A DNA stretch of 22,265 nt from a virus. The notes under the pieces are model-generated. The model was not told the origin of the DNA and ran no database searches. It was given only the letters and a program-made list of their open reading frames with translations. The stretch spans positions 1 to 22,265 of IMG/VR virus record IMGVR_UViG_3300006947_000094. The stretch is one strand, 5' to 3'. The position numbers were made by a program, and so were the translations under genes. The number at the start of each line of letters is the position of its first letter. Position 1 is the stretch's first letter. Shown one piece after another: positions 1 through 13,794 of this stretch.

Positions 1-468
1 ACACCAGGAACACCAGCAGAACCAGTAACACCAGCACAGCCACAAGCAGGTGAACAACCAGCACAACTTAAACCAGTACCAGGTCCTACTACAGCAGAAC
101 TAAAAGCATTACAATCTAAGACACTACAAGGTGACTTAGCATCTGCAAAAGCATTGGTTGCTAAATTAAGTGAACTAAAAACTAAAGGATATGATGCAGA
201 TAACTTTATCCAATCAGCCGCACCTGCAATGAAACGAGGTGGCCTAGCAAAAACAGATCCACAAGCATACGCAAACTTTGTTAAGATGGCAAGAAGTATG
301 AGAGCAGAAGCATACGAACACATGTGTTCTATACTAGAACATGCAGGACTTACTTGGGCAGACATAGGATATGAAGTATTAATATCAGAAAGTGTAACAT
401 CACATGTTATGCTAATACCAACTGACGTTGTTCAAATGTCAGAAATGAAAAAGTTAGCAGGTATATAA
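1..468 (+). CDS. unknown protein, 5' truncated, Pro/Ala-rich N-terminal part
   Basis: The reading frame is open from base 1, so the true start lies outside the window; the TTG at 154 is not a convincing start because the frame upstream is open and protein-like. The first ~30 visible residues are a Pro/Ala/Gln/Thr-rich linker (repeats such as TPGTPAEP and TPAQPQAG). A helical region of about 125 residues follows, with Lys/Ala-rich amphipathic stretches. It ends at TAA 466-468, which overlaps the next ATG by one base, implying translational coupling. I do not recognise the family. Its position in a block of late genes suggests a virion or assembly protein, which is inference. Confidence 0.75.
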   Translation, partial: TPGTPAEPVTPAQPQAGEQPAQLKPVPGPTTAELKALQSKTLQGDLASAKALVAKLSELKTKGYDADNFIQSAAPAMKRGGLAKTDPQAYANFVKMARSMRAEAYEHMCSILEHAGLTWADIGYEVLISESVTSHVMLIPTDVVQMSEMKKLAGI

Positions 469-1763
469 TGCGATTTATAGAAATATCTAAACCCCTAGTT
501 ACTAGAATATTAAGTGAGAGCTTAATGCTAGAAGCAGACGGCAAGAACACCCACATGGAACATCTAGAAGATAACATTTTCAACAAAGGTTATCAAGGTG
601 CTAAAGAAGCAGTGGACTATTTGTACAGTTTACATCAAATGTTAGAAGGCTCAGCAAAGGGTGCGTTTGATATGACAGTTAAGTGGGACGGTTCGCCTGC
701 ATTAGTATGCGGAAAAGATCCGCAAACTGGTAAATTCTTTGTAGGTACTAAGGGTGTGTTTGCAGGAAAAGCAAAACTTAACTTCACAGACGAAGACATT
801 GATAACTACCACGCAGACCAAGCCGGGAAAGAAGGTAGCGGCTTACGAAAAAAATTAAAAGTAGCACTTAGAACGTTAGGTAAACTACAGTGGGACACAG
901 TTGCACAAGGCGACATGATGTTTATGAAAGGCGACATCAAAGAATTAAATCATGATGGCGAAGCACTTATATATTTTAAGCCTAACACTCTTGCTTATGC
1001 TTTACCAAAGGACAGCGACTTAGCAAAGCAAATGTTGGCAGCTGAAATTGGTATAGTATGGCACACAGAATATGCAGGCGGCCCAACACTAGCAGATACA
1101 ACAGCAACATTTGGATTTGATTCATCTAGATTAGGTGATGGCAGTAATGCCGGTGTTTGGCAAACTGATGCAAACATCAAAGATGTATCAGGTACAGTAA
1201 CAATGACTGCTCAAGAATCAGCAGAAGTACTAGCAACTATCAAAGCCGCTGACACTTACACTAAACAAATTAGTGGAGAAGTATTTAATTGGTTAGAGAA
1301 AGGCAACGACTTAGTAGGCAAAGATTTCTTACAACAACTAAAAGCCACAGTAAATAATAAGATTAGAGCAGGAGACTTTGGCTCCCCTGAAAGTTTAGCA
1401 AAAGAATTTGTTGTAAAATGGATTGACAAGTCTACAAAAGAAATTGACAAAGTAAAAATGCAAAAGACTAAAGATGCCAAAACTGATAGCATGGTTAAAA
1501 CTGTAGCATTTATTAAACAACATGCTAAAGAAATAACAGCAGTGTATGATTTATACTTGATGTTAATTAAAGCAAAACTTGTAATCATAGACAAGTTAGG
1601 AAAATTACAAAGCACACAAACGTTTGCTGCAGATGGTGAAGGATTTAAAGCCACAAGCGGAGAAGGGTTTGTTGCAATTGATCGAATAGGCAACGCTCTT
1701 AAACTAGTTGATAGAATGGAGTTTAGTAGATTAAACTTTGGAACAGGAAAACCTACATCATAA
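468..1763 (+). CDS. nucleic-acid-ligase/nucleotidyltransferase-like phage protein (DUF6267-like)
   Basis: A 431-aa protein resembling a family common in marine T4-like phages that I remember as DUF6267. Seen in the sequence: VKWDGSP (71-77), matching nucleotidyltransferase motif I (KxDG, candidate adenylated lysine K72); GTKGVF (93-98); QGDMMF (147-152), resembling motif III with Asp for Glu; and near the C-terminus EGFVA (399-403), followed 13 residues later by K412 in ALKLVDR. That pair resembles motifs IV and V of RNA ligases such as T4 RnlA. Between QGDMMF and EGFVA lies about 250 residues of helical insert, longer than in small ligases. The first 17 residues end in ILSE, a possible T4-type head-protease site. 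Starts in a TAATG overlap with the previous gene. Ligase activity is inferred from motifs only. Confidence 0.8.
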   Translation: MRFIEISKPLVTRILSESLMLEADGKNTHMEHLEDNIFNKGYQGAKEAVDYLYSLHQMLEGSAKGAFDMTVKWDGSPALVCGKDPQTGKFFVGTKGVFAGKAKLNFTDEDIDNYHADQAGKEGSGLRKKLKVALRTLGKLQWDTVAQGDMMFMKGDIKELNHDGEALIYFKPNTLAYALPKDSDLAKQMLAAEIGIVWHTEYAGGPTLADTTATFGFDSSRLGDGSNAGVWQTDANIKDVSGTVTMTAQESAEVLATIKAADTYTKQISGEVFNWLEKGNDLVGKDFLQQLKATVNNKIRAGDFGSPESLAKEFVVKWIDKSTKEIDKVKMQKTKDAKTDSMVKTVAFIKQHAKEITAVYDLYLMLIKAKLVIIDKLGKLQSTQTFAADGEGFKATSGEGFVAIDRIGNALKLVDRMEFSRLNFGTGKPTS

Positions 1764-2563
1764 TGGAATTTGAATTTATAGATCAAGAAATATCAGAAAG
1801 TAGATTGTACAGATCTTCTGGTAACATGCGCCAACTCACAGGTAGAGACGTTGCTGACTTGCTATATCTCAACACTATTGCATTATATTTAATGGTGCAA
1901 GATGATGTACAACATAGGTATGCAAGTAACTATGCAAAGCAAACTACCCAATACGGTGGTTACAATACTTTTAGAACAAGTGCTACTGATTTATATCTAC
2001 TAGGATACATGCTAAATCAACCCAAGAGTGATAAAATAAGTTTAAAGAATAGAATGTCGAGTGTTTCTTTCCTACAAGGATTAAACTTTGATAGTCGTAA
2101 GCACTTTATGTTTATGAAAAAGATAGCAAATGGATCAGATAGAAAAAACGAAGCAGTGGGCTACTTCTTTAGATTAGAATCACAACTTAAGATTAAAGAT
2201 TCTAAATTTAAACAATACCGTAGATATATCACTGACTGGGGTAACTTAAAATTTTCAAGTAGACAATTAGTTGTAACTAAACTATTACAAACAATGCGTT
2301 ATTTAGGTAGAGGCAGTGAACTTATAAGTCCAATGACAGCTATGGTTAAATACAAAGCATTTACTTCTGAGCCAGCATACAGTGTACCTAGAACTAGTTT
2401 TGCAAAAAAAGTTGGTGGTGCAGCTCTTGGTGCAGTTGCAGGAAGATATGCCGCTAAGAAACTAACAAAACTTGCAAAAAATAAACCAGATACACTTAAA
2501 AAAGCAGGCACAGGTATAGGTGCAATTGCAGGCTATTGGGCAGCTGGCAGGAAAAAGAAATGA
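1763..2563 (+). CDS. unknown phage protein with C-terminal glycine-zipper segment
   Basis: A 266-aa protein, starting in a TAATG overlap with the upstream gene. Residues ~25-200 are Tyr/Leu/Arg-rich and mostly helical, without a motif I recognise. The C-terminal ~55 residues contain two small-residue segments, GGAALGAVAGRYAAKK and GTGIGAIAGYWAAG, separated by a Lys-rich linker and ending in RKKK. Such glycine-zipper hairpins often insert in or contact membranes, so a membrane-active or membrane-associated role is possible. It sits between the ligase-like gene and a gene for a head-targeted-looking protein, and is probably co-translated with both. Function unknown. Confidence 0.8.
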   Translation: MEFEFIDQEISESRLYRSSGNMRQLTGRDVADLLYLNTIALYLMVQDDVQHRYASNYAKQTTQYGGYNTFRTSATDLYLLGYMLNQPKSDKISLKNRMSSVSFLQGLNFDSRKHFMFMKKIANGSDRKNEAVGYFFRLESQLKIKDSKFKQYRRYITDWGNLKFSSRQLVVTKLLQTMRYLGRGSELISPMTAMVKYKAFTSEPAYSVPRTSFAKKVGGAALGAVAGRYAAKKLTKLAKNKPDTLKKAGTGIGAIAGYWAAGRKKK

Positions 2564-3090
2564 AGATAAATGAAATTATTCTTTTAGAAAACGATGCTGA
2601 ACTAAGAGATAGATTAGGACAGGAATTTGATGACGAGTATGGAAATCCAAAACTACCCCAATTCATAATGTTAGACAAATCAAGTGTTGTTGCATTAGCA
2701 GTAGGTTATATTAAAAGACCTAAATGGAGCCCGGGTATGGCATTAAAGTTTGCTGTAAAACAAAGATACCCAGACTTTAAAGTAATATATACTGGTATGT
2801 CTGATGAACAAATTGACACGGTTAAAAATGCTAAACCGGATACAAAGCCAGACGACAGCGTTCAGGCTAGAATCAAGAACGATATGAAAAGAAAAGCTGA
2901 TCAACCTACCGGAACTGTAGGCGGGCAAATAGGTAATACAAATAGATTAGGTACCGGATCAGGTAACACTAGTAGATTTAATCCTCTTGCCGGCACCGAT
3001 CAATCAAGTTTAAGAAAAGCAGTCGGCAGCGGTTTAGCAAAAGCAAAGCGTAACTTTAAAAATTCAGACATATTTAAGGTCGGGAAGTAA
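2560..3090 (+). CDS. unknown protein with capsid-targeting-like N-terminus
   Basis: I place the start at ATG 2560, which forms an ATGA overlap with the upstream stop (2561-2563). An in-frame TTG at 2536 would overlap the previous gene by 28 bases and has no advantage. The product is 176 aa. It begins MKINEIILLE, close to the T4 internal-protein leader (MKTYQEFIAE) and ending in L-L-E, a possible cut site for a T4 gp21-type prohead protease. Residues ~30-85 look like a compact domain (around AVGYIKRPKWSPG and the DFKVIYTGMSDEQ region). The rest is a Gly/Asn/Thr-rich linker with a basic C-terminus. Candidate internal head protein; the domain itself is not recognised. Confidence 0.8.
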   Translation: MKINEIILLENDAELRDRLGQEFDDEYGNPKLPQFIMLDKSSVVALAVGYIKRPKWSPGMALKFAVKQRYPDFKVIYTGMSDEQIDTVKNAKPDTKPDDSVQARIKNDMKRKADQPTGTVGGQIGNTNRLGTGSGNTSRFNPLAGTDQSSLRKAVGSGLAKAKRNFKNSDIFKVGK

Positions 3091-5257: not shown

Positions 5258-8200
5258 ATGAAGTCTAAAGATATACGCACAATAAAATCGTTAATCTCTG
5301 AGTACGGAATGAATAGCGGAGTTAGTACTCCTAGTTCTCAACAACAAACTGGGTCAACTGCTAAAGCAACAGCAGCCGCTAAGCCGGCGAAGTCAGGTGT
5401 AAATAAACCACAGGTTAGTCCTAGCAGTCAGCAAAATAAAACTAACACTGATGGACCAGCACCGGTTGAACCAATTATATCAAAAGCAAAAGAGTTAGCA
5501 CAAGACTTTGAATACCTAGACGACAAAGGCGATACTGTTAAAGTAATGAGCCCTGTAAACAACGGTCTAAACAAAAATGCAGTTGTTGTACAAAATCAAA
5601 AGAACAAAGAATTTTATACATTAGATCCTGACGATGATATTACAACGTCAGCTGGCGAACCAGTTACAGAAAAAGCAAAACTACCTAACAATGTTAAACG
5701 TAAGCATAACTTATCTAACAAGATTAAAAGATTACTCAGAGCACAGAAGCATATACAACAAGGTGATCCAATATTTGAACTAAACTTTAATAAGCCAGAC
5801 TTAGCAAAGCAAGCATTAAGTGCTCCGGTTAAGTGTGGATTTGAAGCAGAAACAGTTTGGAATGATTTATCCGGCTCCGATGGAGATGAAGATTGGTTAG
5901 ATGGCAACAACTGGTACGATATTAGCTCAAAGCTAGAAGATCAAGAAGGGGATCGCGGTGTAGAGTCAGTAGAAGAAGGATTCAGAGAATGGATTCAGGA
6001 AACTGATTATTTCTACGATGCAGAAAGAGAAATAATAGATGATCTAGTACGCGACCGTAAAGATGATGAAGACTATACTGACCGTTATGTAGATGATAAA
6101 GTATCTATGGACGATGTTGACGAATATAAAGAAATGATTATGTCAAATTTAGCCAAAGGCAGCTCAGACACTGACGAAGCCGCTGCCGAAGAGACCGAAG
6201 AACGCAAATCATGGGAAGACGATGCCTGGGCTAGAGAATATGTTGAAATAAATGAAGATGACGCATTTGAAGAATGGCTAATAGATGATATTAGAGATAA
6301 CGGCGAAGCATTTGATGATGCATGGAGTAACGTACTAGACAACCATGACCCAGAGACCTGGTGTGATGACGAGTACAGAGGGAATTGGAATGCCCTACTA
6401 GGTGATCTCGATATATTTTTGTACAATGAGCAAGGCGGTGGACAAGAAGAAGTTGCTCAATATTTAACCCAATGGGCAGATAAGAATAGCTTTAGATCAG
6501 AAGTTGAAGCAGGAGAATATCACAGCGGCACAGCAGTTGATAATGCCTACTGGCGTGTAGAAGATGATAGTTCAATTGACGGCTCTGGATTAGGTTCTGA
6601 ACTTATTAGTCCTGTATACGATACACCGCAAGACATGCTTAAAGAAATAAAAAGTTTGTTTGATTGGATGAGCGAAGAACACGCCGTAGAAACAAATAGC
6701 TCAACTGGTTTACACATTACAATGAGCATGGCTGACAGTGGCTCAGGCGAAACAAACAAATTAAAAATGGCTTTACTGCTAGGTGATCAATACTTGTTAA
6801 AACAGTTTAACAGAGCAGATAATAGTTATACAGCAAGCCAACAGGCACGAATTAAAAAGTATGTAGAGGATTTAACTAAAGATCAAAAGGCTGAAAAGAG
6901 TCTTGCAGGTCTAGAAGAGATACTAAGCAGTGGTATTAGTTCTGGTAAGTTTAGTAGTATCAACTTCAAGGAACAGAAAAACAGCGAAGGAAATAAACTA
7001 ATAGAATTTCGTGTTGCAGGCGGATCAGATTATACTAAAGATGTAGACTTAATTGTTAAAACGGTTATTCGTTATGCGGCAGTAATGCAAGCAGGACATG
7101 ACAAAGATGCATACAGAGCAGATTATATTAAAGCATTATTCCGTATGCTAAATTCAGTAGACGAAATTGACCCAGACACTGTAAAGAATGCATCGTCATA
7201 TATTGACCCTTCTGTTGCTGATGCTAAAGTAATAGATGCATTTAAAGATTTAGCAAGTAAACGATCCTACAAAGATGCACTAGAATACTTAGGTATGGCG
7301 TATACTGCATTAGGACGTTACACGCAGATGGCATCAGCAGACATGCAAGGTGACTTATTTCAAGAAAATGAAGCAGAAGATGAGACACCTGAAGACGAGT
7401 CATTGCAACAAAGTCGTCAACGTCAGCAAGCATATTTAGATCATGCTAAAAAATACTTTAGTAAAGCATTTGCAATGATTATTAGTGACTTAGCAAATGG
7501 AAACAATCGCACTGAGCCTAAAGTAAAACAAATTGCAGGTTTTAGAAAAGGATTTAAAGATTTTGGTATTCCGGGTGCAGAACTTTGGGATATGCTGAAA
7601 AAAGAAAAATTGTTTACTAACTCACCGACAACCGTACATCAAAAAGAAATAGACTGGGCTGAAGGATTTAATAAGCTATTAAACGTAAACGTAGCTAAAG
7701 CAAGAGTTGCAGACTTTAACGTTAATTTCGATGCTAATAACGATGCACTGTTTATGACTGGTACATACCGAAATTACATACAGAAAGACGCTGGGTTAGA
7801 TTTATTCAACGATGACAAAGCCACAGGCGAAGACCCTGGTGATATACTAAACCCAGAAATGTTTACAGTTGTACCTGACAAAGAGTTAACCGCAGTAGAA
7901 AGAACTGTATACGATTACGACGAAGCCGTAATAGATTACAAAAATGATGTAGAAAGGGCAGACAACATGCAACGTGAGTTAGATACAAAGGATTCGGATA
8001 GTTATAATGATCCATCTACTCTTAGTAATAAAATGGCACTTCGAATGGCACAAGAAGATTATCCTAACTATAAAAAAATGTGGGACGGTGGATTTGGCTT
8101 GTTTATGGCTGATCCAAACATTAATGCTGTAAAACTAGCAAGATGGATTAACAACTTAGAAACAAGTAATAATGCAAAACAAGATGTTCTAAATGCACTA

Positions 8201-10129
8201 GTATACAACAAGGAAAACAATGGCAATCCTGTACAGTGGGATGAAATATCATCAATGGTACAAGCATACAAAGCAGGCGGAGTTGATACTACAGACTTAA
8301 TAGACGCTGATCACCCTGCACATGCACAAGGAAGTAGAACTAACGAAAATAGTGTCGAAGATACAGAGCGAGCCATTAGTAAAATGCGTGGCAGTGCAGA
8401 CATGAATATGCGGTTATTAAATGGAAAGAAACAAGAATTAGATGCGTTTGAAAAGAAGTATGGCTTTGTTCCTAGTAGTGTTAGATATGGATCAACCGGA
8501 TACTCTGTGGGCGATATGGCTAGAGTAAATACAGAAATGCAACGTCACATTGCTAACAAATATAACGTTAGTTTTAGTAAGATAAAAGAGAGTAAAAACA
8601 TGTTTGAGAATTTTAATAAACTACCATTGCGTAAGCAGTTAGAAATAGTTAGTAAAGTTGATGCTAATAAGATAAACGAAGCACTAATAGTATCTAAGAA
8701 AAAGTTAAATGAAACTATTGAAGCAGAACAAGATATGACTGCATTATTAACTACTTACGGTACGCCTAGTAAAAAGAAAAAGAAAGGCAAAGGTTTTGAA
8801 CATCCTAACAAGTCTGGCTCAGGCAGAGCAGCAAAATATACAGAAGGTGCTGTACCAGACAACTCCCCTGTAAAGAAAATACGTCAGTTATTAAATGTTC
8901 CTTTACTTGCTAGTGATTTAAAATCTCAAATGGAAGCATACTTTGTGGTTCCTGATCCAAGCATGATTAGAGCATTCAGAGAAGCAGCCAGCGGTGGCGG
9001 ACCAGACACAGATTTGCGTACTATATTCAAAGGCTTTGTACAAAATAAAGTACATCCAGAAATTAAAAAGAAAGCAGGATTAACCGAAAGTAAATCTGAT
9101 CTAATTAAAAAATTAGAAGAACTACCAGACGATGACAAAACTAATAAATTAATTAACTACATTGAACAACTGTTAAACGATATGGGTGTTGGTGGCAAAA
9201 TACAAAGTTTAAGTAACATGTTAGGCGAAGTGCCGGATGAGGATGTTAAGAAAGCAATTAAACAAATTGCAAAGATTGTAGCAAGTATAGAAATGACACC
9301 AGCAGAAAGAGCAAAACTTTTCATGGACTGGAAACAAGATAAATTAATTCGAGTTGATACATTGTTGTCTACATCAACTGATACTATGGCTGAAATATTT
9401 GTTGGCTACGGCATGGAAGGAAACGAACATATAACAGAATTAGTTAATGACTTAAATGAAGTTGTACAGTACGGTATCGGGCCAGGTGAGTTTGCACTGT
9501 CAGTATTGTCACAGAGAATTGGCGGCATGGGAGCATCATCGGGTGCTGACGATGGCAAAGGTGACTTAATGATTGACGGTCAACCAATTGAATTGAAGAC
9601 AACAAGAAAAAATTCTGCTAGATTTAATGACAGGCAAGTTACTGTGTCAGATTCATACAAGACTATGGTAACAGCATTCTTTACAAAGTATGCTGAGAAA
9701 TTCAAAGAACTAGAAGCACAGGGTGCAGTGTTAAGAGTTAAATCAGGTATGCAACAAAATCATGTTGCGGCTTTCTTAAAGTTAGTACCTGAGGCAGAAA
9801 AAGAAGTAGCAGATATTATTTCAAATATCTTTACAGAACTACCTAACGCAGGTACTGAGATAGCACAATACTTAGCACAAAATAACATTAACGGAGCAAT
9901 GCAGACCATAGCCCAATCTAATGTTAATAACTACCTTGCCGCAAAAAGAGGCGGAGGCAATCTTAAAGGAATACTTTTCTTAGATCTTAAAAAGCAGACG
10001 TTTACCTTTATACAAGACGTCAAGGATTTAGCCGGTTCCGGCTTAAGACTACATGCAAAGACAAACTATCTTGTGACAACAAATGAAAATCCATTTGCAA
10101 ATACATCAATAGTAGACAGTAGTAACTAA
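5258..10129 (+). CDS. giant late protein: amidoligase-like domain plus PD-(D/E)XK-like nuclease motif
   Basis: A 1623-aa protein. Residues 1-15 (MKSKDIRTIKSLISE) resemble a capsid targeting leader ending in I-S-E. Residues ~16-75 are a Ser/Gln/Lys/Pro-rich linker. Residues ~190-620 resemble the phage amidoligase family (ATP-dependent carboxylate-amine ligase of glutamine-synthetase type): CGFEAE (193-198), SELISP (447-452), TGLHITM with H486, and IEFRVAGG near 580. A long Asp/Glu-rich insert (~200-400) splits the first two motifs. Residues ~620-1150 are helical with no motif I know. Towards the C-terminus, GDLMIDGQPIELKTTRK gives D1436, E1445 and K1447, the D-x8-E-x-K pattern of PD-(D/E)XK nucleases. 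A KKKKKGKG linker precedes the C-terminal part. It is probably a virion protein; both activities are inferred from motifs. Confidence 0.85.
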   Translation: MKSKDIRTIKSLISEYGMNSGVSTPSSQQQTGSTAKATAAAKPAKSGVNKPQVSPSSQQNKTNTDGPAPVEPIISKAKELAQDFEYLDDKGDTVKVMSPVNNGLNKNAVVVQNQKNKEFYTLDPDDDITTSAGEPVTEKAKLPNNVKRKHNLSNKIKRLLRAQKHIQQGDPIFELNFNKPDLAKQALSAPVKCGFEAETVWNDLSGSDGDEDWLDGNNWYDISSKLEDQEGDRGVESVEEGFREWIQETDYFYDAEREIIDDLVRDRKDDEDYTDRYVDDKVSMDDVDEYKEMIMSNLAKGSSDTDEAAAEETEERKSWEDDAWAREYVEINEDDAFEEWLIDDIRDNGEAFDDAWSNVLDNHDPETWCDDEYRGNWNALLGDLDIFLYNEQGGGQEEVAQYLTQWADKNSFRSEVEAGEYHSGTAVDNAYWRVEDDSSIDGSGLGSELISPVYDTPQDMLKEIKSLFDWMSEEHAVETNSSTGLHITMSMADSGSGETNKLKMALLLGDQYLLKQFNRADNSYTASQQARIKKYVEDLTKDQKAEKSLAGLEEILSSGISSGKFSSINFKEQKNSEGNKLIEFRVAGGSDYTKDVDLIVKTVIRYAAVMQAGHDKDAYRADYIKALFRMLNSVDEIDPDTVKNASSYIDPSVADAKVIDAFKDLASKRSYKDALEYLGMAYTALGRYTQMASADMQGDLFQENEAEDETPEDESLQQSRQRQQAYLDHAKKYFSKAFAMIISDLANGNNRTEPKVKQIAGFRKGFKDFGIPGAELWDMLKKEKLFTNSPTTVHQKEIDWAEGFNKLLNVNVAKARVADFNVNFDANNDALFMTGTYRNYIQKDAGLDLFNDDKATGEDPGDILNPEMFTVVPDKELTAVERTVYDYDEAVIDYKNDVERADNMQRELDTKDSDSYNDPSTLSNKMALRMAQEDYPNYKKMWDGGFGLFMADPNINAVKLARWINNLETSNNAKQDVLNALVYNKENNGNPVQWDEISSMVQAYKAGGVDTTDLIDADHPAHAQGSRTNENSVEDTERAISKMRGSADMNMRLLNGKKQELDAFEKKYGFVPSSVRYGSTGYSVGDMARVNTEMQRHIANKYNVSFSKIKESKNMFENFNKLPLRKQLEIVSKVDANKINEALIVSKKKLNETIEAEQDMTALLTTYGTPSKKKKKGKGFEHPNKSGSGRAAKYTEGAVPDNSPVKKIRQLLNVPLLASDLKSQMEAYFVVPDPSMIRAFREAASGGGPDTDLRTIFKGFVQNKVHPEIKKKAGLTESKSDLIKKLEELPDDDKTNKLINYIEQLLNDMGVGGKIQSLSNMLGEVPDEDVKKAIKQIAKIVASIEMTPAERAKLFMDWKQDKLIRVDTLLSTSTDTMAEIFVGYGMEGNEHITELVNDLNEVVQYGIGPGEFALSVLSQRIGGMGASSGADDGKGDLMIDGQPIELKTTRKNSARFNDRQVTVSDSYKTMVTAFFTKYAEKFKELEAQGAVLRVKSGMQQNHVAAFLKLVPEAEKEVADIISNIFTELPNAGTEIAQYLAQNNINGAMQTIAQSNVNNYLAAKRGGGNLKGILFLDLKKQTFTFIQDVKDLAGSGLRLHAKTNYLVTTNENPFANTSIVDSSN

Positions 10130-10149: not shown

Positions 10150-10527
10150 ATGAAGATCAATGACATTATACAAGAAACAACTAGTGCAGGCGGTATTGCT
10201 ACCGTTGCAGCTCCATTAGGCGGTATGCAAAAAAGACCTAATGCAAGTGTGTTTGCTAATGCAACTCCCAAAAAGAAAAAGAAAAAAGCAACTGAGAACA
10301 CTAAAGACGAAGTACTTCCGAAATGTGAACTTTGTAAAGGCGAAGGCTGTGATGCTTGTGGTGGTACTGGTGAAGAAGATGGCTACATTCACAGAGAAGG
10401 TAAGAGCCCACATAAAAAAGGTACTAAGAAATATAACAAGCACATGGCAGCAATGCATGCCGAGGCTACTCTACAAACAGGTGGATACGGCAAGTCTAAA
10501 AAGTCAAGACATCAGCAAAACATTTAA
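10150..10527 (+). CDS. zinc-knuckle protein with capsid-targeting-like N-terminus
   Basis: A 125-aa protein. Residues 1-9, MKINDIIQE, match the T4 internal-protein leader pattern (acidic, hydrophobic, I-x-E). Then comes TSAGGIATVAAPLGG, a lysine run (41-46), and a DnaJ-type zinc motif with C59, C62, C67 and C70 spaced CxxCxGxGCxxCxGTG. The C-terminus is basic with several His and Lys residues. One pair of CxxC units is enough for a single zinc site, whereas DnaJ has four such units. A nucleic-acid- or protein-binding cargo protein is likely. It follows the giant gene by 20 bp and carries a late promoter immediately before its ATG. Confidence 0.8.
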   Translation: MKINDIIQETTSAGGIATVAAPLGGMQKRPNASVFANATPKKKKKKATENTKDEVLPKCELCKGEGCDACGGTGEEDGYIHREGKSPHKKGTKKYNKHMAAMHAEATLQTGGYGKSKKSRHQQNI

Positions 10528-13455: not shown

Positions 13456-13794
13456 ATGTTAATCAACGAAGTAATATCAGAAGGATATTTTTCCGACTTA
13501 ATTCTAACAGTGCAAGATTTGCTAACAAAACTAGCAGCCAAAGGTGTACAAGACATTCCTACTGAAAAATTTAGATCATTATTAGCCAAGCAAGGCTATG
13601 TTACTACAACAGACGAACTTATTACAGCAATTGATAAGAGCGGACATGCCAGTAGTGTAAACAGAGATATAATTAAACCTAACAATCAATTACCTGCAGA
13701 AATAAGCACAGGCGATGACGAAACAGCGGCAGACACAGTATCTGATTTAGCAAAAGGTGCCGCAACAACTGCAATGAATACGGAGATAGTATAA
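13456..13794 (+). CDS. small head-targeted-looking protein, 112 aa
   Basis: The product begins MLINEVISE, matching the acidic-hydrophobic-I-x-E leader of the other candidate internal proteins. Residues ~18-75 form a small helical domain (DLLTKLAAKGVQDIPTEKFR, then LLAKQGYVTTTDELITAIDK) like a compact helix-turn-helix. The C-terminal part is acidic and flexible, with GDDETAAD. Only 1 nt separates it from the upstream structural gene, and the following ATG is 1 nt after its stop, so three genes run as a tight late operon from the promoter at 12111. Exact function unknown. Confidence 0.75.
   Translation: MLINEVISEGYFSDLILTVQDLLTKLAAKGVQDIPTEKFRSLLAKQGYVTTTDELITAIDKSGHASSVNRDIIKPNNQLPAEISTGDDETAADTVSDLAKGAATTAMNTEIV

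What the first reader, a model, noticed from the sequence alone, without database searches (positions are those of the whole stretch)
5258..10129. Giant protein combining an amidoligase-like domain and a PD-(D/E)XK-like nuclease motif
Seen: CGFEAE, SELISP, TGLHITM and IEFRVAGG in the order of the amidoligase family, split by an Asp/Glu-rich insert; then D1436, E1445 and K1447 in a nuclease-type pattern; and a targeting-like leader. Amidoligases form peptide-type bonds, and a virion-delivered version next to a nuclease motif is an unusual pairing. It could modify a host or virion protein and cut host DNA. The second His of the common GLHxH motif is Thr here.
Basis: partly seen in the sequence, partly recalled or inferred. 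Interest (0 to 1): 0.75.

Follow-up and report, generated by a model that had tools for sequence, protein, structure and literature searches.

The report
Phage giant protein: amidoligase plus nuclease-like domain
A large marine bacterial virus encodes one giant protein that joins a bond-making enzyme (amidoligase) to a DNA-cutting-type domain behind a short tag of the kind T4-type phages use to load proteins into their heads; it is probably a packaged, injected effector of a new design, but no step has been tested at the bench.

Summary
In detail: one 1,623-aa ORF at 5258-10129 with every motif at the stated residue. The amidoligase is real: PF12224 above its cutoff, catalytic residues kept in 33 relatives, and a model whose 50 best PDB matches are all glutamine synthetases. 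The D/E/K pattern alone is chance-level in this protein, but in 44 relatives down to 14% identity E1411, E1445 and K1447 never change and D1436 is kept in 42. The predicted strand order suits a PD-(D/E)XK nuclease; fold and profile searches do not confirm it. Both domains occur elsewhere as stand-alone genes. Nearly all giant proteins and most stand-alone ones start with a leader ending in (I/L)xE, the T4 gp21 cleavage motif; two long relatives encode T4-type portal, gp21-family protease and gp23 capsid. A ~77-aa module between the domains, present in 36 of 43 complete amidoligase ORFs, is flanked by gp21-like sites. Best reading: a head-packaged, injected two-enzyme effector, possibly cut during head maturation; a new variant of injected multidomain phage proteins. 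Virion location, processing and activities are untested.

The parts
5258..10129 (+). giant ORF, 1,623 aa: leader, linker, amidoligase, variable middle, M module, nuclease-type domain
   Evidence: homologues with the same layout
5258..5302 (+). residues 1-15, MKSKDIRTIKSLISE: T4-type capsid-targeting propeptide candidate; predicted cut after E15 (ISE|Y)
   Evidence: [LI]xE at this place in all five full-length proteins of A1; list of leaders; statistics; gp21 consensus L/I-X-E from PMC9026906
5315..5482 (+). residues 20-75, low-complexity S/T/P/Q/K linker
   Evidence: sequence
5780..7327 (+). residues 175-690, amidoligase (Amidoligase_2, glutamine-synthetase-type core)
   Evidence: Pfam PF12224 over cutoff; AlphaFold pLDDT 85.7, pTM 0.57; the 50 PDB fold matches shown are all glutamine synthetases
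5852..6547 (+). residues 199-430, acidic helical insert splitting the amidoligase after its first strand
   Evidence: 32% D+E; helices in the model; shorter insert in the Atu_ph07 homologue
8843..9073 (+). residues 1196-1272, conserved M module (EGAVPDNS...PLLASDLKSQMEAYFVVPDPSMIRAFR...)
   Evidence: HMM found it in 36 of the 43 complete amidoligase ORFs tabulated; gp21-like sites flank it in 22/26 (upstream) and 23/26 (downstream) vs 7.0% and 4.9% background
9080..9088 (+). residues 1275-1277, LTE|S: candidate prohead-protease site at the border of the nuclease-type domain
   Evidence: [LI]xE in all five full-length proteins of A1; stand-alone homologue L095 becomes similar just after this point
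9089..10126 (+). residues 1278-1623, nuclease-type domain with GPGE1411, D1436, E1445-x-K1447
   Evidence: 44-sequence alignment; AlphaFold pLDDT 84.8, pTM 0.79; PDB fold search inconclusive
10150..10527 (+). neighbouring 125-aa ORF with a leader of the same kind (MKINDIIQE|T)
468..1763 (+). neighbouring DUF6267 protein (PF19782), leader-like start; relatives mostly in cyanophages, best matches in Methylophilales phages

Best explanation
The gene encodes a virion-internal effector of a large myovirus with a T4-type head. Residues 1-15 act as a capsid-targeting propeptide; the protein is taken into the prohead, and the phage's S77 (gp21-family) protease removes the leader after ISE15. The giant protein, or pieces of it cut at conserved (L/I)xE sites flanking the M module, is packaged with the genome and injected. 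In the host the amidoligase uses ATP to form an amide bond on a host protein, peptide or wall precursor, and the C-terminal PD-(D/E)XK-type domain cuts DNA. Shown here: the two-domain ORF, the amidoligase family and its GS-type core, conserved catalytic-type residues in both domains, the conserved leader, T4-type head and protease genes in two relatives, and both domains as separate genes elsewhere. Inferred: nuclease fold and activity, packaging, cleavage, injection and substrates.
For: PF12224 over cutoff, and in 23 of 33 members. GS-only PDB fold matches, prob 0.77-1.0. E435, D437, E448, H486, E583 and R585 invariant and E196, E198 at least 90% in A5. E1411/E1445/K1447 44/44 and D1436 42/44; predicted order helix(E)-strand-strand(D)-strand(ExK). 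Leader motif in 47/51 amidoligase ORFs and 32/41 stand-alone nuclease-type ORFs. Peptidase_S77 in 4 of 9 long relatives; gp20, S77 and gp23 side by side in two relatives that also have a giant gene. Stand-alone versions: Atu_ph07, L095-L155, both domains apart in one contig. In Atu_ph07 the homologue lies in CDS 170-215, a gene cluster rich in proteins found in the virion by mass spectrometry (PMC6102473).
Against: No PDB fold match for the C-terminal domain better than E=0.7 and prob 0.10. No Pfam match beyond weak, chance-level hits; DUF4420, a putative PD-(D/E)XK family, in 4 members with best E 0.073. hhalign finds no likeness to the window's own exonuclease. No virion proteomics could be read for any member. 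43% of other large ORFs in these loci also have [LI]xE near the start, so the leader is not unique to these proteins. The window holds no recognised protease gene itself (it is a fragment).
Confidence: 0.5

Rival explanations
1. It is a polyprotein-like cargo carrier: the prohead protease cuts it at (L/I)xE sites around the M module, so the amidoligase and the nuclease-type domain act as separate proteins in the head or host.
For: Sites flank the M module in 22/26 and 23/26 proteins against 7.0% and 4.9% background; LTE1277|S is [LI]xE in all five full-length proteins of A1; the domains exist as separate leader-bearing genes; L027 and L067 end right after the downstream site.
Against: Conserved Glu may be structural; the sequences are related, so counts are not independent, and the motif classes were drawn after seeing the sequences; other conserved [LI]xE sites lie inside the amidoligase (E463, E583).
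Confidence: 0.35
2. It is a morphogenesis protein of the head (core or scaffold type) whose enzyme domains work during assembly, for example cross-linking or trimming, and it is not injected.
For: In T4, gp21 also processes core proteins that do not act in the host (PMC9026906); the M module also occurs in other phage proteins; the homologue in Atu_ph07 sits two genes from the portal gene.
Against: Conserved catalytic-type residues and different C-terminal modules in relatives look more like an effector than a structural part.
Confidence: 0.2
3. The amidoligase part is a metabolic or wall-modifying enzyme made during infection, as proposed for other phage amidoligases, and the C-terminal domain is a non-catalytic part; no packaging.
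For: Known phage amidoligases sit in wall-modification or early-gene cassettes (PMC10580990, PMC3890496, PMC5498523).
Against: No partner genes of those cassettes were recognised among the window proteins scanned; leader and head-type context; E/D/ExK kept in 42-44 of 44.
Confidence: 0.15

Closest known systems
Polyvalent proteins (Iyer et al. 2017, PMC5512222), e.g. P1 DarB, N4 virion RNA polymerase
   Same: giant multidomain phage proteins carrying several enzyme domains, many expected to be packaged and injected
   Different: the word amidoligase does not occur in that paper's text; a T4-type leader, amidoligase and M module were not found described there
T4 Alt and internal proteins IPI-IPIII
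   Same: short N-terminal propeptide ending in (L/I)xE, cut by gp21, protein injected with DNA (PMC9026906)
   Different: smaller; Alt is an ADP-ribosyltransferase; no amidoligase or nuclease-type domain
Amidoligase_2 (PF12224) of phages such as LUZ24-like and OM43 phages
   Same: family match and core residues
   Different: those are free-standing enzymes in early or metabolic cassettes; here fused with leader, acidic insert and nuclease-type domain, and Thr for the second His
phiKZ and SPN3US head proteins processed by gp175/gp245
   Same: large-phage head proteins cut by a diverged gp21-type protease (PMC10052503, PMC9026906)
   Different: SPN3US site is AXE; other protein families
Agrobacterium phage Atu_ph07 AUZ94978.1 (gp196 by numbering)
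   Same: nearest homologue in a named phage, 500 aa, PF12224 30.2 bits
   Different: no M module and no nuclease-type domain found

Membership tests
Amidoligase_2 (PF12224) | Pfam match above curated cutoff | tested here: met
   25.7 bits vs 22; 28.5 for the domain alone
Amidoligase_2 (PF12224) | glutamine-synthetase-type core | tested here: met
   50 PDB matches shown are all glutamine synthetases, best E=1.4e-3, but TM-scores about 0.2, which I ascribe to the helical insert
Amidoligase_2 (PF12224) | GFExE, E, GxH, EFR residues | tested here: met
   E435, E448, H486, E583, R585 invariant; E196, E198 at least 90%
Amidoligase_2 (PF12224) | second His of GxHxH | tested here: not met
   T488, kept in at least 90% of 33 relatives; that the His is general in the cellular family is from memory and was not tested, so this is not treated as excluding membership
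Amidoligase_2 (PF12224) | ATP-dependent amide bond formation | not testable with these tools
   needs purified protein
PD-(D/E)XK nuclease superfamily | D and ExK signature conserved in homologues | tested here: met
PD-(D/E)XK nuclease superfamily | alpha-beta-beta-beta-alpha-beta core | tested here: inconclusive
   order of elements in the model fits; Foldseek top hit is a restriction endonuclease (3ndh) but E=0.7, prob 0.10
PD-(D/E)XK nuclease superfamily | profile-level match to a known family | tested here: not met
   only weak DUF4420 and BstXI hits in a few members; none
PD-(D/E)XK nuclease superfamily | metal-dependent DNA cleavage | not testable with these tools
   needs purified protein
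T4-type capsid-targeted internal protein | short leader ending in (L/I)xE | tested here: met
T4-type capsid-targeted internal protein | phage encodes S77 prohead protease | tested here: met
   in relatives only: 4 of 9 records, with gp20 and gp23 in two; the window is a fragment
T4-type capsid-targeted internal protein | present in the virion, leader removed | not testable with these tools
   Atu_ph07 homologue lies in a virion-protein gene cluster, but its own detection is in a supplement that could not be read
Polyvalent proteins | several enzyme domains in one phage-delivered chain | tested here: inconclusive
   two domains shown; delivery not shown

The most novel reading that the evidence does not exclude
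A modular delivery system in T4-headed large phages: one gene encodes a chain of enzymes behind one capsid-targeting leader, the conserved M module serves as a connector with protease sites on both sides, and the C-terminal module differs between phages (GPGE/ExK type; SSK type in L018/L052/L059; SIK type in L033/L036/L057; Cu/Zn superoxide dismutase added in L093). The head protease then releases the separate effectors inside the prohead.
Probability: 0.3. Interest if true: 0.8.

Novelty: new variant of a known kind. Interest (0 to 1): 0.6.

Why it matters
It would add protein ligation plus DNA cutting to the short list of activities that T4-type phages inject with their DNA, and would show a head protease being used to process multi-enzyme cargo. 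The nuclease-type family is found in dozens of viral contigs, had no match in PHROGs or Pfam for the members scanned beyond weak hits, and now has defined residues to mutate. The leader rule offers a sequence-only way to list candidate injected proteins in uncultured large phages.

Tried and rejected
tblastn of the C-terminal domain and of two stand-alone versions against named phages: no match. Genome-collection scans with both alignments: no relatives, so no cellular reference for the GxHxH motif. Plasmid search for amidoligases: none. PDB sequence search with both profiles: nothing meaningful. hhalign between the nuclease-type domain and the two other C-terminal types or the window exonuclease: no similarity, so the other types are called nuclease-like only by residue pattern. 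Considered and rejected: the D/E/K pattern as evidence by itself (chance level); a frameshift or assembly artefact (five other contigs matched over most of the length; many complete ORFs of the same layout).

Full report
What is there. The window is a 22,265-base virus record, a fragment. Neighbours are a DUF6267 protein whose relatives are mostly in cyanophages, small leader-bearing ORFs, an exonuclease, and both subunits of ribonucleotide reductase.

Amidoligase. Pfam PF12224 matches residues 427-557 at 25.7 bits, over the cutoff of 22. An alignment of 33 sequences (24-67% identity to the window) keeps E435, D437, E448, N480, H486, E583 and R585 in all rows and E196, E198 in at least 90%; 23 of the 33 match PF12224 on their own. 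The AlphaFold model of 175-690 has pLDDT 85.7 and pTM 0.57, and the 50 PDB matches shown are all glutamine synthetases, best E=1.4e-3. TM-scores are low, about 0.2, which I ascribe to the acidic helical insert at 199-430. So the glutamine-synthetase-type core is supported. Thr488 in place of the usual second His is conserved in the family.

Nuclease-type domain. A pattern D-x(8-20)-E-x-K turns up about as often in shuffled versions of this protein (12.4 starts on average) as in the real one (15), so the motif alone proves nothing. Conservation does the work: in an alignment of 44 sequences, the others 14-74% identical to the window, G1408, E1411, L1414, E1445 and K1447 never vary and D1436 is kept in 42. 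The model of 1278-1623 (pLDDT 84.8, pTM 0.79) puts E1411 at the start of a helix, D1436 just before a strand and E1445-x-K1447 in the next strand, as expected from general knowledge of PD-(D/E)XK enzymes. Yet the PDB fold search is inconclusive: its first hit is a restriction endonuclease, 3ndh, at E=0.7 and probability 0.10; the viral library gives only uncharacterised phage proteins at significant E-values. Pfam scans of all 44 members give no solid match. I therefore call it PD-(D/E)XK-like and do not file it as a proven member.

Separate genes and architectures. The nuclease-type domain is a stand-alone ORF of about 280-470 aa in some 40 distinct viral ORFs, and the amidoligase is without it in Agrobacterium phage Atu_ph07 and in L069. 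The 321-kb contig behind L151 has both as separate genes, roughly 120 kb apart. Of the 43 complete amidoligase ORFs tabulated, 25 carry the nuclease-type domain and 36 carry the M module; the 7 without M are Atu_ph07 (L010), the L053 736-aa ORF, L069, L079 and three paralogues in L084. In L053 the M module sits in the next ORF, which overlaps the first by 8 bases and may be a frameshifted continuation. The M module also occurs in phage proteins that lack an amidoligase, such as those in L100, L106 and L140. Other giant proteins carry different modules near their ends: a GE..GP..VDS..SSK type, a D..SIK type, or nothing after M; L093 has a Cu/Zn superoxide dismutase domain after the nuclease-type domain. 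These types are not detectably related to each other by profile comparison.

Leader and head context. T4 gp21 cuts after L/I-X-E, and the first ten residues of IPIII suffice for head targeting (PMC9026906). In the amidoligase set, 47 of 51 distinct starts have [LI]xE within residues 2-22, as do 32 of 41 stand-alone nuclease-type ORFs, against 43% of other large ORFs in the same loci and 17% of internal stretches. Those other ORFs may include head proteins, which would raise the comparison value; on the other hand the sequences are related and the counts are not independent. Four of nine long relatives have a Peptidase_S77 gene. In G001 and G008, which also encode giant amidoligase proteins, T4-type portal, S77 protease and gp23 lie together. 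The gp23 homologues carry LQE|S and LSE|A near residue 40, plausible maturation sites, not mapped here.

Possible processing. Around the M module, [LIVMY]xE[GSNAD] upstream and [LIM]xE[SWKNG] downstream occur in 22 and 23 of 26 clustered proteins, against 7.0% and 4.9% of random stretches of the same proteins. The motif classes were drawn after looking at the sequences, so these figures favour the idea. In the five-way alignment the window's LTE1277|S is [LI]xE in every row. This fits a chain cut into separate enzymes, but a structural role of these Glu residues is not excluded.

Virion evidence. None could be read directly. Atu_ph07 has a published virion proteome (PMC6102473). Counting from its capsid gene gp215 (AUZ94997) and portal gp198 (AUZ94980), the amidoligase AUZ94978 is gp196, inside the cluster CDS 170-215 that the authors describe as rich in virion proteins. 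Whether gp196 itself was seen is in a supplement not open to me.

Verdict. The finding is real and broader than a single odd protein: it is a family of modular giant proteins in uncultured large phages, with T4-type heads where this could be checked. The most likely working is packaging, injection and action on host targets by two enzymes; activity, delivery and processing are inferences. The literature library gave phage amidoligases as free-standing enzymes and no such fusion was found; the polyvalent-protein survey does not mention amidoligases in its text. New variant of a known kind.

Noticed in passing
L093:2610-10028 and L094:2772-9986: Giant proteins of 2,472 and 2,404 aa; L093 has a Cu/Zn superoxide dismutase domain (PF00080, E=6.9e-44) after the nuclease-type domain. 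L094 has the same layout and length range but its end was not scanned.
   Followed up: partly
L079:4362-12899: 2,845-aa protein with an amidoligase at about 1006-1467 and an N-terminal FFFGRLNPPHFGHQG stretch that looks like a nucleotidyltransferase motif.
   Followed up: no
L084:5791-11410: Three amidoligase-family ORFs in a row in a 375-kb contig; none has the M module or a leader of the usual kind.
   Followed up: no
L100:1542-3440, L106:273-1667, L140:1-1215: M-like module inside 404- to 632-aa proteins of phages with the stand-alone nuclease-type gene; the module is not confined to amidoligase proteins.
   Followed up: partly
L053:7488-12165: Amidoligase ORF (736 aa) and an 824-aa ORF with M and an SSK-type end overlap by 8 bases: split gene or frameshift.
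   Followed up: partly
window 2560-3090, 10150-10527, 13456-13794: Three small ORFs of unknown function with leader-like starts ending in (I/L)xE.
   Followed up: no
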